Below are positions 61,364 to 64,000 of a stretch of 64,000 nt of DNA, one piece after another (positions within the stretch are counted from its first letter, which is position 1; each line of letters begins with the position of its first letter). Origin of the DNA: Mucilaginibacter tolerans. GTDB taxonomy: Bacteria; Bacteroidota; Bacteroidia; Sphingobacteriales; Sphingobacteriaceae. A program made the position numbers and the translations under genes. Under the pieces are notes generated by a model. It was not told where the DNA came from. It was given only the letters and a program-made list of their open reading frames with translations, and made no database searches. Location: the NCBI RefSeq assembly GCF_030519375.1, contig NZ_JAUMKB010000012.1:62001-126000 (forward strand). The letters are read 5' to 3'.

Positions 61364-63031
61364 TTATGCTTCTAACAAAGGCAGATCGAAATAAAAAGTA
61401 GAACCTTCACCCAACTTGCTCTCTACTCCTATTTTTCCATTATGCGTGTTGATGATTTCGGAAGATATATACAGGCCCATACCTAAACCACTGGCCATGT
61501 TTTTCTTGTCTTCCACCCGATAAAATCGTTCAAAAACCTTATACCTCTGCTCCTCCGATAATCCTATGCCAAAGTCAGTTACCGATACCCGGGCACAGTC
61601 GTTATATTTTGATGATTTAATGATAACCCGGCGGCTGCCGTTGGAGTACTTAACTGCATTATTTATAAGGTTCATCAGTACCTGTTCTACACGTTCAGCA
61701 TTACCTTTTATCGTGAGATCGTCCGTATTTTCCATCTCGAAAGTATAAGCCGGATTCATGTGTATTGCGTTTTCAACGCAACTCGCCACTACATCTTTCA
61801 GATTAATGGTATCCAGGTTATAGCTTAGTCTGCCTGCCTTTATTTTGCTCATATCCAGCAGATCATCCACTAAAAACTGCAGCTTCCCTAATGCTATAAC
61901 CGCTTTATTGATGTATTGCTTCACTGTTTCCGGAAGATCATCTTTTTTATGCAGCAGAATAAGCTGAAGGTACCCCTTCAAGCTTGTCAATGGTGTTTTC
62001 AATTCGTGACTGGCCACACCAATAAATTCATCTTTCCGTTCCAGCTCCCTTTTTTGTTCTTCAATATCTGTAGCAGTGCCCACCCATAGTATGATCTCAC
62101 CAATTTCATTTTTTAAAGGCATGGCCCGGTTCAGGTGCCAGCGATAGATCCCATCCTTTCCACGGCGGTACCGGCTCTCAACTTCAAATACCCCTCCTGT
62201 TTGCAAAGCCGCCCGGTAGTTGTCCATAAAGGTTTCAATGTCATCGGGGTGAATAGCTTCGCGCCACCCCCAACCCATTGATTGCTCAAAACCCAGCCCT
62301 GTATAGTCGTACCAGCGCTCATTAAAAAAATTCACCCGGCCATCTGGCATACAAGTCCAGGTCATTTGGGTGATGTGATCGGCCAGCAGTTTTAAATTTC
62401 CCCGGCTGACTGAAAGGTCCTTGGTACGTTCGATCACCATGGCCTCCAGTTCATTTTTTTGTCGGGTAACCTGCCCCTGGGCCGCTTCGAGCTTTTCGTT
62501 TTGTGATATCAGATGCTTCTGGGTAGTCTTTTGCGTTGTCAGGTCAGTCAGTATCACACTCAAACTGTGTCCCCAGTCCATATCTATAACTGCAAACGAA
62601 CACAGGCAACAGGTGGGCTCGTTATTCTCGCTTTTAATAAACAGTTCCCCTTTAGTATCTTTTTTCCAGGCCTTTTTTAACAATTTTTTATATATCGCTT
62701 TTGATTCTTCCGCAATAAAATTTTCAAAAGGCACTCCTATTACCCTTTCCGGTGAGGCCTGTACAAGGCTGGTAAACCTGCTATTGCAATACAAAACAAG
62801 CCCTTCTTCATCAACAGTTATCGCACCCTCGCTCATCTTTTCGATGAAGACCCGGTAGGTATGATCGGCGGTTTTTAAGGTGTATAGCTGGTGAGCCCCC
62901 TCGTTTTTCACAACCAAGGCATCAACCTGCCCTGTACGGATGGCCTCGAGCATATCATTAGCTTCGTCCAAACGCCATTGCAGTTCGTCATTTCTATTTA
63001 ATAATTCTTCGTATGAGATCTGCTTCTCCAT
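61364..63031 (-). CDS. PAS-domain sensor histidine kinase of the kai operon
   Basis: A 555-residue soluble kinase without membrane segments. Layout: N-terminal helix, PAS 1 (about 55-170), coiled coil (170-212), PAS 2 with PAC end (about 212-328), HisKA with phospho-accepting His342 (F-I-G-V-A-S-H-E-L-K-T-P), and HATPase_c with N-L-I-N-N-A-V-K-Y, D-F-G-I-G-L and G-L-G-M-G-L-Y-I-S. Its start codon shares one base with the stop of a kaiB gene (TAATG), so it is translationally coupled to the Kai proteins. In cyanobacteria the kinase SasA reads KaiC through a KaiB-like domain; this one has PAS domains instead. It may be the output of the Kai module. Confidence 0.9.
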   Translation of the reverse strand: MEKQISYEELLNRNDELQWRLDEANDMLEAIRTGQVDALVVKNEGAHQLYTLKTADHTYRVFIEKMSEGAITVDEEGLVLYCNSRFTSLVQASPERVIGVPFENFIAEESKAIYKKLLKKAWKKDTKGELFIKSENNEPTCCLCSFAVIDMDWGHSLSVILTDLTTQKTTQKHLISQNEKLEAAQGQVTRQKNELEAMVIERTKDLSVSRGNLKLLADHITQMTWTCMPDGRVNFFNERWYDYTGLGFEQSMGWGWREAIHPDDIETFMDNYRAALQTGGVFEVESRYRRGKDGIYRWHLNRAMPLKNEIGEIILWVGTATDIEEQKRELERKDEFIGVASHELKTPLTSLKGYLQLILLHKKDDLPETVKQYINKAVIALGKLQFLVDDLLDMSKIKAGRLSYNLDTINLKDVVASCVENAIHMNPAYTFEMENTDDLTIKGNAERVEQVLMNLINNAVKYSNGSRRVIIKSSKYNDCARVSVTDFGIGLSEEQRYKVFERFYRVEDKKNMASGLGMGLYISSEIINTHNGKIGVESKLGEGSTFYFDLPLLEA

Positions 63032-63351
63032 TACAAATTCACTGCGTTTATTTCAAGTCCTTTAAGCACTTTGAGTTTGTCAGACATATCTCCAATTAGC
63101 TTTCTTTCCATGCCAGGGGATTTTTTTATTAGCATGGGTAATGCGATCACCTGCTCGTCTATGGCGATAGCAGGCTGCTGATACACATCAATTATCTCGA
63201 GTTCATAGCGATCTTTTAAATATTCTTCACATATTTTTTTCAGGTTCGATATAGCTCGTGCCGAATTTGGTGATGCTCCCGTTACAAACAGGCGCATAAC
63301 GTAAATATCCTTGCGTTTTTTAAGGCCAGAAACACCTTTTTTCTCTGCCAT
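63031..63351 (-). CDS. kaiB: KaiB-like protein 1 (divergent)
   Basis: A 106-residue KaiB-family protein with a basic N-terminal tail (EKKGVSGLKKRKD). The thioredoxin-like core reads V-M-R-L-F-V-T-G-A-S-P-N-S-A-R-A-I, L-E-I-I-D-V-Y-Q-Q-P, A-L-P-M-L-I-K-K-S-P and I-G-D-M-S-D-K-L-K-V-L-K-G-L. Compared with the second KaiB it has A-L-P-M-L in place of A-T-P-T-L. It lies between that kaiB (14-nt gap) and the kinase (1-nt overlap). It probably binds the KaiC homolog or the kinase; the roles of the two copies may differ. Confidence 0.9.
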   Translation of the reverse strand: MAEKKGVSGLKKRKDIYVMRLFVTGASPNSARAISNLKKICEEYLKDRYELEIIDVYQQPAIAIDEQVIALPMLIKKSPGMERKLIGDMSDKLKVLKGLEINAVNL

Positions 63352-63365
63352 TATAGATTAATCAT

Positions 63366-63656
63366 TTAAGCAGGAATAATGTTTAACCCAACAAGAACTT
63401 TTTCTTCATTAGACAGGTCACCGATTATTTTCCGAATAGGCTCCGGAACTTTGCGTACAAGCGTTGGGGTCGCCAAAATCTGGTCGCCCTCAGCCAGTTG
63501 CGGTTTGCGCAAAAGATCGATCACCTCTATTTTATATTGACCTTTTAGGTGTTCTTCGCAATATCGCCTGAGATTATTCAAAGCCGTGACTGATTTCTCA
63601 GTATGCCCGGCTATGTACAACCTTAGCTCCCATTTCTTTTCATTTTCTGTCGTCAT
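63366..63656 (-). CDS. kaiB: KaiB-like protein 2 (canonical)
   Basis: A 96-residue KaiB of normal length. The conserved pattern is complete: L-R-L-Y-I-A-G-H-T-E-K-S-V-T-A-L at the start, V-I-D-L-L-R-K-P-Q-L-A-E-G-D-Q near residue 45, A-T-P-T-L-V-R-K-V-P-E-P, and I-G-D-L-S-N-E-E-K-V-L-V-G-L. KaiB binds phosphorylated KaiC in cyanobacteria after switching fold. Its ATG overlaps the kaiC-like stop by four bases (ATGA), which indicates coupled translation. Confidence 0.93.
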   Translation of the reverse strand: MTTENEKKWELRLYIAGHTEKSVTALNNLRRYCEEHLKGQYKIEVIDLLRKPQLAEGDQILATPTLVRKVPEPIRKIIGDLSNEEKVLVGLNIIPA

Positions 63657-64000
63657 TTTCCAGTGTTTTTGGGTTCATCCTTGTTTTCGCTGCCACGTCT
63701 TATCGATTGTATCGTCTCCCGGTTTTTGTTCAATATCTGCTTTCTTAACTCTTCTTCCTCATACACTTTATTGAGTTCTTCTTCTACCGATTCAAATTCG
63801 GAATTCAGACTGGCAATTTTAGATTCCAGTACCTTTCGTTTACGAATAATTTCCCTGTCTTTCCGGCTAAGCGCATAATTGTGAATGGCTACACCGGTTT
63901 CCTCCTGTATGACCTGTGCTTCACGGGCCGACCCGGTAAGGATACCGTCAGGACCAATATATACATCTATCAATTCAAGGCCACTATCGCTTATCACAAA
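63653..64000 (-). CDS. kaiC: KaiC-like ATPase, C-terminal part (cut by window end)
   Basis: About 115 codons of the C-terminus of a KaiC-family protein, entering from beyond 64000. The reading frame is open to the last base. It starts within the last RecA-like domain (I-S-D-S-G-L-E-L-I-D-V-Y-I-G-P-D-G-I-L-T-G-S-A-R) and continues into a charged coiled tail (about 60 residues with K-V-L-E-S-K-I-A-S-L and E-E-E-L-R-K-Q-I-L). The same G-P-x-G-x-L-T-G-S-A-R stretch ends KaiC homologs outside cyanobacteria. Phosphorylation sites and Walker motifs lie outside the window and cannot be checked. It heads the operon with two kaiB genes and a kinase. Confidence 0.88.
   Translation of the reverse strand, partial: FVISDSGLELIDVYIGPDGILTGSAREAQVIQEETGVAIHNYALSRKDREIIRKRKVLESKIASLNSEFESVEEELNKVYEEEELRKQILNKNRETIQSIRRGSENKDEPKNTGK

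What the first reader, a model, noticed from the sequence alone, without database searches (positions are those of the whole stretch)
61364..64000. kaiC-kaiB-kaiB-PAS kinase operon outside cyanobacteria, with no visible kaiA
Four genes on the minus strand overlap or nearly touch (ATGA, 14 nt, TAATG), giving strong evidence for one functional unit. Two KaiB proteins differ at key positions (ATPTL in one, ALPML in the other), and the kinase reads its input through PAS domains rather than the KaiB-like domain of SasA. The unit may be a stress- or redox-linked phosphorelay or timer built from Kai parts. The specialised second KaiB is the least explained part.
Basis: partly seen in the sequence, partly recalled or inferred. 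Interest (0 to 1): 0.62.

Follow-up and report, generated by a model that had tools for sequence, protein, structure and literature searches.

The report
KaiA-free clock operon, specialised second KaiB
A bacterium far from cyanobacteria carries a compact clock-protein operon of an already known kaiA-free type, but its second KaiB looks permanently held in the shape that ordinary KaiB adopts only part of the time, and the operon's kinase has an unnamed front end that tracks such operons, which makes the open question of how these timers signal directly testable.

Summary
The operon is real. The genome beyond 64000 completes kaiC: 583 aa, two intact ATPase domains, Ser-Ser phosphosite, C-terminal tail, 51% identical to Rhodobacter sphaeroides KaiC; no KaiA. 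The core is thus a known kind: a KaiBC timer with a PAS kinase. Three findings go further. (1) The order kaiC-kaiB1-kaiB2-kinase is old: 50 of 58 Bacteroidota-type and 15 of 22 other loci of a KaiB2-biased scan have it, and a supported branch parts KaiB2 from KaiB1. (2) In Bacteroidia KaiB2 is charged at KaiB positions 68/83, where published mutations flip KaiB to its fold-switched form (35 of 37 KaiB2, 0 of 37 KaiB1; repeat 41 of 43, 0 of 43). Paralog-specific AlphaFold2 models of modest confidence best match ground-state KaiB (KaiB1) and fold-switched KaiB (KaiB2). (3) The kinase starts with a module, unnamed in Pfam, found once in this genome, at kai, and in 24 of 24 KaiB-bearing family genomes; the R. 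sphaeroides kai kinase has it too. Best reading: a KaiC/KaiB1 timer plus a permanently binding-shaped KaiB2 that helps couple KaiC to the kinase, a detached SasA sensor. The coupling is inferred, not shown.

The parts
63653..64000 (-). 3' part of kaiC (residues from about 469 on; the gene runs on to G000:C3:127404, outside the window). Holds the C-terminal tail, about 63656-63913 (residues 498-583).
   Evidence: two PF06745 domains; tail aligns to R. sphaeroides KaiC up to residue 552 of 568; 86 residues beyond the LTGSAREAQ motif
63366..63656 (-). kaiB1 (96 aa): canonical-looking KaiB; I74 and V89 stand at R. sphaeroides KaiB I68 and V83
   Evidence: PF07689 98.5 bits; ground-state model; KaiB1 side of the tree
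63031..63351 (-). kaiB2 (106 aa): second KaiB with DVYQQP signature; E82 (63106-63108) and K97 (63061-63063) stand at R. sphaeroides KaiB I68 and V83; P67 replaced by M81
   Evidence: PF07689 82.3 bits; residue counts; fold-switched-like model; KaiB2 side of the tree
61364..63031 (-). Histidine kinase, 555 aa: N-terminal module, two PAS domains (about 68-165 and 218-328), HisKA with His in SHELKTP (motif starts at 341), HATPase_c; no stretch hydrophobic enough for a membrane helix (best 19-residue hydropathy 1.26)
62831..63031 (-). Kai-associated N-terminal module of the kinase (residues 1-67): heptad-like helix followed by EAIRTGQVDALVV and a stretch into the first PAS
   Evidence: alignment A2; no Pfam family over its cut-off; 1 match in the own genome; family and phylum distribution

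Best explanation
A KaiA-independent KaiBC timer of the R. sphaeroides type with two KaiBs of divided labour. KaiC phosphorylates itself with the help of its own C-terminal tail. KaiB1 is the metamorphic regulator: mostly in the ground state, it switches fold slowly, binds the KaiC CI ring and favours dephosphorylation. KaiB2 has lost two hydrophobic residues that hold the ground state and stays in the fold-switched, thioredoxin-like form; with KaiC it acts on the N-terminal module of the adjacent kinase and so reports the state of KaiC, as the KaiB-like domain fused to SasA does in cyanobacteria, but as a separate protein. Shown here by sequence: the operon, intact KaiC motifs, no KaiA, an old KaiB1/KaiB2 split, charge at 68/83, a kai-linked kinase module. 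Inferred: the stable fold of KaiB2, its partners, the direction of signalling and any timing function.
For: KaiC: motifs, SS site and tail as in R. sphaeroides, whose tail replaces KaiA (PMC10076222, abstract and passages). KaiB2 charge (D/E/K/R) at 68 or 83: 35 of 37 against 0 of 37 KaiB1, repeated 41 of 43 against 0 of 43 in further Bacteroidota loci; of 35 columns hydrophobic in KaiB1 only these two are mostly charged in KaiB2. These are two of the three positions whose mutation raised fold-switched R. sphaeroides KaiB from 11% to 86% (PMC10808063, passages). Models: KaiB1 matches ground-state KaiB (VIA Z 14.9-16.9, fold-switched at most 4.6), KaiB2 matches six fold-switched KaiBs first (Z 7.8-9.4). 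Legionella KaiB, crystallised fold-switched, scores better with KaiB2 than with KaiB1 (67 against 58 bits), unlike the other KaiB chains listed. Module: present in 45 of 45 Bacteroidota genomes with KaiB2-type KaiB and 2 of 9 KaiB genomes without; partial distance correlation with KaiB2 0.46, KaiC tail 0.35, KaiC core 0.30, KaiB1 0.02, rest of the kinase 0.04. KaiB2 kept without KaiB1 in L085 and L086, still beside the kinase.
Against: Models are of modest confidence (pLDDT 63.6 and 66.3), a ground-state chain (4kso_B) still ranks 4th by E-value for KaiB2, and reading KaiB folds from shallow alignments is disputed (PMC10836070, abstract and passages). Outside Bacteroidota KaiB2 is charged at 68/83 in only 1 of 23 rows, so the pair is older than the locking. 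Position 84, the third published mutation, is Gly in 24 of 37 KaiB2 and 37 of 37 KaiB1. The module also occurs without KaiB2 (L090, L095, R. sphaeroides, Falsirhodobacter), so it may dock on KaiC or KaiB1. The KaiB helix reported to contact KaiC (PMC6769508, passages) is almost invariant in KaiB1 but diverged in KaiB2. The distance correlations ignore shared history beyond the matrices used. No binding, fold or rhythm was measured.
Confidence: 0.42

Rival explanations
1. Mixed ring: KaiB1 and KaiB2 sit side by side on the KaiC CI ring; KaiB2 tunes the cooperativity of KaiB1 binding, and the kinase reads KaiC directly through its N-terminal module.
For: Lateral KaiB-KaiB contacts in T. elongatus pair R23/K26 with E84/D91 (PMC6769508, passages). 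KaiB2 is basic at 23 in 37 of 37 and 43 of 43 rows; KaiB1 has E84 in 37 of 37 and 43 of 43 but Thr, Ala or the like at 23 (basic in 5 of 37 and 0 of 43); KaiB2 has E84 in only 14 of 37 and 13 of 43. The module is in R. sphaeroides, which has one KaiB in its operon.
Against: KaiB2 persists without KaiB1 in L085, L086 and in seven loci with a shorter KaiC; in other phyla KaiB2 is basic at 23 less often (R9, K2 of 23 among the residues listed); the R. sphaeroides KaiB ring has little lateral contact (45 square angstrom; PMC10076222, passages).
Confidence: 0.25
2. KaiB2 is a plain competitor or helper of KaiB1 on KaiC (same site, faster on-rate, no link to the kinase), so the unit is an ordinary R. 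sphaeroides-type KaiBC timer with two KaiB isoforms.
For: Both are KaiB by Pfam; a fold-switched KaiB would be ready to bind; [quoted passage not shown]
Against: The KaiC-contact helix is diverged in KaiB2; module distances follow KaiB2 and not KaiB1.
Confidence: 0.22
3. KaiB2 is a decaying duplicate under relaxed selection with no distinct role.
For: KaiB2 evolves faster: mean pairwise identity 0.671 against 0.859 for KaiB1 in 50 loci.
Against: An open kaiB2 lies beside kaiB1 in 35 of 39 Bacteroidia loci and alone in two more; it has its own conserved signature; charge is confined to two of 35 hydrophobic columns; the split is older than the phylum.
Confidence: 0.08

Closest known systems
Rhodobacter (Cereibacter) sphaeroides kaiC-kaiB-HWE kinase operon (PMC10076222, abstract and passages; gene table of pRSKD131A)
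   Same: No KaiA, KaiC with C-terminal tail and SS site (289 of 570 aligned residues identical), kaiB then a kinase whose start carries the same N-terminal module (42 bits)
   Different: One KaiB in the operon, and it lies on the KaiB1 side of the tree; kinase annotated as HWE type, here HisKA/HATPase_c
Rhodopseudomonas palustris kaiC-kaiB-PAS/HK (PMC4794148, passages)
   Same: KaiA-free operon with a PAS kinase; kai-dependent fitness in 24-h cycles reported
   Different: One KaiB in the operon as described there
Fold-switched KaiBs: Legionella Lpp1115 (4kun) and T. elongatus vestitus KaiB-4 (8ubh) (PMC10808063, passages)
   Same: KaiB2 model matches them (Z 9.4 and 7.9)
   Different: KaiB2 is the second of a KaiB pair in one operon next to a kinase with the kai-linked module; its fold is unmeasured
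SasA, the KaiC-binding kinase of cyanobacteria (PMC6769508, passages)
   Same: A fold-switched KaiB-like unit and a histidine kinase serving KaiC is the arrangement proposed here
   Different: In SasA the two are fused; here the kinase has no KaiB-like domain
kaiCBB of Thiodictyon syntrophicum (PMC5944118, passages)
   Same: kaiC with two kaiB genes
   Different: Named in one sentence, with a diguanylate cyclase upstream; the passages seen give no analysis of the two KaiBs

Membership tests
KaiBC timer of the R. sphaeroides type | Two KaiC ATPase domains with Walker A and catalytic EE | tested here: met
KaiBC timer of the R. sphaeroides type | Two phosphorylatable residues at RS S413/S414 | tested here: met
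   S430/S431; mapped through the alignment with the 4-residue numbering offset of the annotated protein; SS in 120 of 125 rows
KaiBC timer of the R. sphaeroides type | C-terminal extension of KaiC | tested here: met
   86 residues beyond LTGSAREAQ, aligned to RS KaiC to residue 552
KaiBC timer of the R. sphaeroides type | No KaiA | tested here: met
   PF07688 0 of 121 genomes, own included; control rings
KaiBC timer of the R. sphaeroides type | Dodecamer through a coiled-coil bundle; KaiB raises ATPase and dephosphorylation | not testable with these tools
   needs purified proteins
Canonical KaiABC oscillator | KaiA present | tested here: not met
SasA | N-terminal KaiB-like domain fused to the kinase | tested here: not met
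Fold-switch-locked KaiB (KaiB2) | Charged residues at RS 68 and 83 | tested here: met
   E82 and K97 in the window; KaiB2 25 of 37 and 29 of 37, KaiB1 0 of 37 each; repeat 28 and 36 of 43, KaiB1 0 of 43
Fold-switch-locked KaiB (KaiB2) | Predicted fold is the thioredoxin-like one | tested here: inconclusive
   best matches are fold-switched KaiBs, but pLDDT is 63.6
Fold-switch-locked KaiB (KaiB2) | Measured predominance of the fold-switched state | not testable with these tools
   needs NMR
NCBIfam KaiB equivalogs (NF006798, TIGR02654) | Score over the curated cut-offs (110 and 145.3 bits) | tested here: not met
   KaiB1 108.7 and 103.2; KaiB2 79 and 77.4; both exceed the Pfam KaiB cut-off

The most novel reading that the evidence does not exclude
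A split SasA: an old KaiBC operon with two KaiBs in which, in Bacteroidia, the second became permanently fold-switched and serves as the detached sensor by which KaiC governs a kinase, through an unnamed kai-associated N-terminal docking module that the R. sphaeroides kai kinase shares. One operon would thus separate the metamorphic (timing) from the constant (signalling) work of KaiB.
Probability: 0.33. Interest if true: 0.82.

Novelty: new variant of a known kind. Interest (0 to 1): 0.6.

Why it matters
How KaiA-free KaiBC timers signal to the cell is open. A kinase module that tracks kai operons in archaea, Alphaproteobacteria and Bacteroidota, and is present in the R. sphaeroides operon, gives a defined place to look. 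A natural pair of KaiBs in one operon, one apparently metamorphic and one apparently locked, is a natural experiment on why KaiB switches folds: many natural sequences carry charge at two positions that were mutated in the laboratory to flip KaiB.

Tried and rejected
Redox (thioredoxin) activity of KaiB2: rejected, one Cys and no CxxC. Kinase as a SasA homolog: rejected, no KaiB-like domain. KaiB2 as a recent duplication within Bacteroidota: rejected by the tree (SH-aLRT 95 for the branch that parts KaiB2 rows of several phyla from KaiB1, R. sphaeroides and cyanobacterial KaiB; only 99 columns, many inner forks open). Charge at 68/83 as an ancestral KaiB2 trait: not supported (1 of 23 in other phyla). 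Module strictly dependent on KaiB2: rejected, since L090, L095 and R. sphaeroides have it without KaiB2. A known name for the module: no Pfam family over its cut-off for the window's copy, only chance-level matches among the 8 members; NCBIfam showed kinase-wide matches only, best 25 of 86 listed. VIA-align lists no ground-state KaiB among its 50 rows for the KaiB2 model; that absence is not proof. Searches for a published analysis of tandem kaiB or of kai in Sphingobacteriaceae; I found only the notices cited, in an open-access library that lacks most subscription papers.

Dropped rows and limits: G292 and G331 (partial KaiB matches, 54 and 47 profile positions, near contig ends or short frames) and G491 and G493 (KaiB under the Pfam cut-off) are left out of the 45/9 table. 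Eight set-2 loci were left out of the repeat count as already in set 1; seven share contig lengths with set 1 (L131, L132, L134, L135, L138, L139, L186), L169 was left out by mistake. Near-identical rows were thinned before the tree. One search used 75 Bacteroidota loci with both KaiBs, a KaiC and a kinase frame of over 330 residues. My positional KaiB labels in the three-KaiB loci (L155, L187) were wrong and were set by tree side from then on. In the 125 KaiC rows seven contigs are counted in both sets.
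Full report
The finding and its ground. The four genes are as described, and Pfam names KaiB, KaiB and a PAS-PAS-HisKA-HATPase_c kinase. The window is G000:C3:62001-126000, so the missing part of kaiC could be read: 583 aa at C3:125653-127404.

KaiC. The best solved match is R. sphaeroides KaiC (8dba, E 5.7e-186, residues 19-567 against 5-552, tail included). Against the annotated C. sphaeroides KD131 protein 289 of 570 aligned residues are identical; with the 4-residue numbering offset of that annotation, S430/S431 stand at RS S413/S414, the EE pairs 78/79 and 318/319 at 62/63 and 302/303, and W436 at W419. 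Among 125 KaiC rows from the fetched loci (the query counted once; seven contigs stand in both sets) the phosphosite pair is SS in 120, ST in 2, and AS, TS and HS in one each. RS KaiC uses its tail where cyanobacteria use KaiA (PMC10076222, abstract and passages). KaiA is absent from 121 of 121 genomes of the family sample, own included, while the control Synechococcus rings.

Conservation of the unit. KaiB occurs in 24 of 121 family genomes and in 39 of 395 phylum genomes at E 1e-3, 37 of them over the cut-off: patchy. I fetched 39 operon loci of class Bacteroidia (L009, L064-L101). Of these, 35 hold a KaiB1-KaiB2 pair, two only KaiB2 (L085, L086) and two only KaiB1 (L090, L095); the kinase module described below is found in 39 of 39. 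The exact order kaiC-kaiB1-kaiB2-kinase module holds in 50 of 58 Bacteroidota-type and 15 of 22 other loci; the others include Ca. Methanoperedens, Acidobacteriota, Nitrospirota, Verrucomicrobiota and an alphaproteobacterium. An annotated Pararhizobium plasmid shows the same order.

Two KaiB lineages. In a tree of 193 KaiB rows (99 columns, quick method, many inner forks open) a branch with SH-aLRT 95 parts a KaiB2 side (96 rows) from a side with KaiB1, R. sphaeroides and cyanobacterial KaiB (97 rows). Of 86 rows labelled KaiB2, 84 fall on the KaiB2 side; the other two (L155_2, L187_2) come from three-KaiB loci that I had mislabelled by position. KaiB1 is the slower protein (mean pairwise identity 0.859 against 0.671 in 50 loci). 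Seven Bacteroidota loci with a shorter KaiC carry a KaiB2-type KaiB alone, as one clade (97).

Why KaiB2 looks locked. In R. sphaeroides KaiB, I68R, V83D and N84R (N84A in its methods text) together raise the fold-switched population from 11% to 86%; in the models V83D turns the last strand into a helix and I68R the last helices into a strand (PMC10808063, passages). With the chain index of 8fwj less 2 as the paper's numbering, D/E/K/R counts are: position 68, KaiB1 0 of 37, KaiB2 25 of 37; position 83, 0 of 37 and 29 of 37; both, 0 and 19; either, 0 and 35. In 43 further Bacteroidota loci: KaiB1 0 of 43; KaiB2 28, 36, 23 and 41 of 43. The seven KaiB2s beside a shorter KaiC: 7 of 7 for either. 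Among 35 columns hydrophobic in at least 90% of KaiB1 only 68 and 83 are mostly charged in KaiB2; the next has 8%. Hitting two given columns of 35 by chance is 1 in 595, leaving the relatedness of rows aside. Position 84 is not changed in that way (Gly in 37 of 37 KaiB1 and 24 of 37 KaiB2). In other phyla either position is charged in 1 of 23 KaiB2 and 1 of 19 KaiB1 rows, so the change belongs to Bacteroidota. The prolines whose isomerisation limits switching (P58, P65, P67; preprint PMC11185700, passages) are kept in KaiB1 (37 of 37 each) and mostly in KaiB2 (37, 36 and 32 of 37); the window's KaiB2 lacks P67.

Models. From 14-row paralog-specific alignments, KaiB1 is predicted with the two C-terminal helices and last strand of the ground state (pLDDT 66.3). 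It matches 17 ground-state chains at E 1.4e-9 to 1.9e-11 (query TM 0.81-0.89) and fold-switched ones only from 1.4e-3 (at most 0.46); VIA-align Z is 14.9-16.9 against at most 4.6. KaiB2 is predicted with a C-terminal helix in place of the last strand (pLDDT 63.6). Foldseek's best three are 5jyt, 4kun and 8fwj, all fold-switched (query TM 0.57-0.63); a ground-state chain, 4kso_B, ranks fourth by E-value, but ground-state chains reach query TM 0.44 at most. VIA-align ranks six fold-switched KaiBs first (Z 7.8-9.4), then thioredoxins, with the SasA domain at Z 7.0. Confidence is modest, and this use of AlphaFold2 is disputed (PMC10836070, abstract and passages); the JPred check that its authors advise was not available.

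The kinase module. Residues 1-67 of the kinase have no Pfam family over its cut-off. A profile of eight such ends finds one copy in this genome, at the kai kinase, although the whole kinase has 65 matches in the genome. In the family sample it finds the same 24 genomes that have KaiB, one copy each, plus one marginal partial match (G064, 7.8e-4). In the phylum sample 28 matches at 1e-16 or better lie in KaiB genomes at the kai locus, and four marginal ones (3.6e-4 to 7.6e-4) in genomes without KaiB. I searched the genomes of 16 of the 22 non-Bacteroidota loci: 15 have it, 13 of them once, one twice and one three times (third at 1.6e-4), with a match at coordinates inside the kai locus in each of the 15; L180's genome has none. 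Four plasmid records have it, each directly beside a kaiB. It is also at the start of the C. sphaeroides kai kinase (42 bits), which tblastn had not shown. Of all 137 fetched stretches 124 have it. Combining the samples, genomes with KaiB2-type KaiB have it in 45 of 45 and KaiB genomes without KaiB2 in 2 of 9 (Fisher p 2e-7, relatedness ignored). Six of the 45 are single-KaiB genomes of family f18 whose KaiB has the YQQP signature; two of those six are in the tree, at the base of the KaiB2 side. Distance matrices of 75 Bacteroidota loci give the module its largest partial correlation with KaiB2 (0.46), then KaiC tail (0.35) and core (0.30), and about none with KaiB1 (0.02) or the rest of its own kinase (0.04); permutations reached these in 0, 1, 0, 121 and 79 of 300. 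Permuting does not keep shared history, so this is a hint, not a test of contact.

How it most likely works. Shown: operon, intact catalytic sites, lineage split, marks of locking, kai-linked module. From published work on RS KaiBC: tail-assisted autophosphorylation, KaiB-favoured dephosphorylation, ATP:ADP ratio as the cue. Inferred: KaiB1 does the RS KaiB job; KaiB2, always in the binding form, links KaiC to the kinase module, doing in trans what SasA's KaiB-like domain does in cis. The main rival, a mixed KaiB1-KaiB2 ring, has support of its own in complementary lateral charges, but KaiB2 persists alone in some loci. Whether KaiB2 binds KaiC at all is open, because the KaiB helix reported to contact KaiC (PMC6769508, passages) is nearly invariant in KaiB1 and diverged in KaiB2. 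No response regulator lies beside the kinase here, so the output is unknown.

Verdict. A KaiA-free KaiBC-kinase operon with intact motifs is a known kind. The ordered pair of KaiBs with a locked-looking second member, and the kai-associated kinase module, make it a new variant with precise, cheap tests.

Noticed in passing
L010:8167-8451 (G000:C12:20184-20423, outside the window): A third kaiB in the genome, without kaiC, near two single-domain response regulators (L010:6894-7265 and 7614-7916); a long branch on the KaiB1 side of the tree.
   Followed up: partly
L009:7644-9681 (outside the window): Divergent from kaiC lie a DUF2383 protein and a second PAS-PAS kinase; relatives of the DUF2383 protein stand in the kai neighbourhood of L065, L069 and L073, a possible stress link.
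   Followed up: no
L141, L150, L162, L170, L176, L191, L194: Seven Bacteroidota loci with a shorter-tailed KaiC (10-22 residues past the motif), a KaiB2-type KaiB alone and a kinase: a second kai lineage.
   Followed up: partly
L202 (Hymenobacter sp. GOD-10R plasmid unnamed3): A kaiB without kaiC among hypothetical genes and a mobV relaxase on a plasmid.
   Followed up: no
L173: A contig binned as Williamsia (Actinomycetota) holds a Bacteroidota-type kai operon and groups with Bacteroidota in the tree: probably misbinned.
   Followed up: no
window 59762-61309 (-): A beta-lactamase-fold serine hydrolase (PF00144) begins 54 nt downstream of the kinase; of the set-1 kai loci only L099 holds another protein resembling it, and not next to the kinase.
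   Followed up: partly
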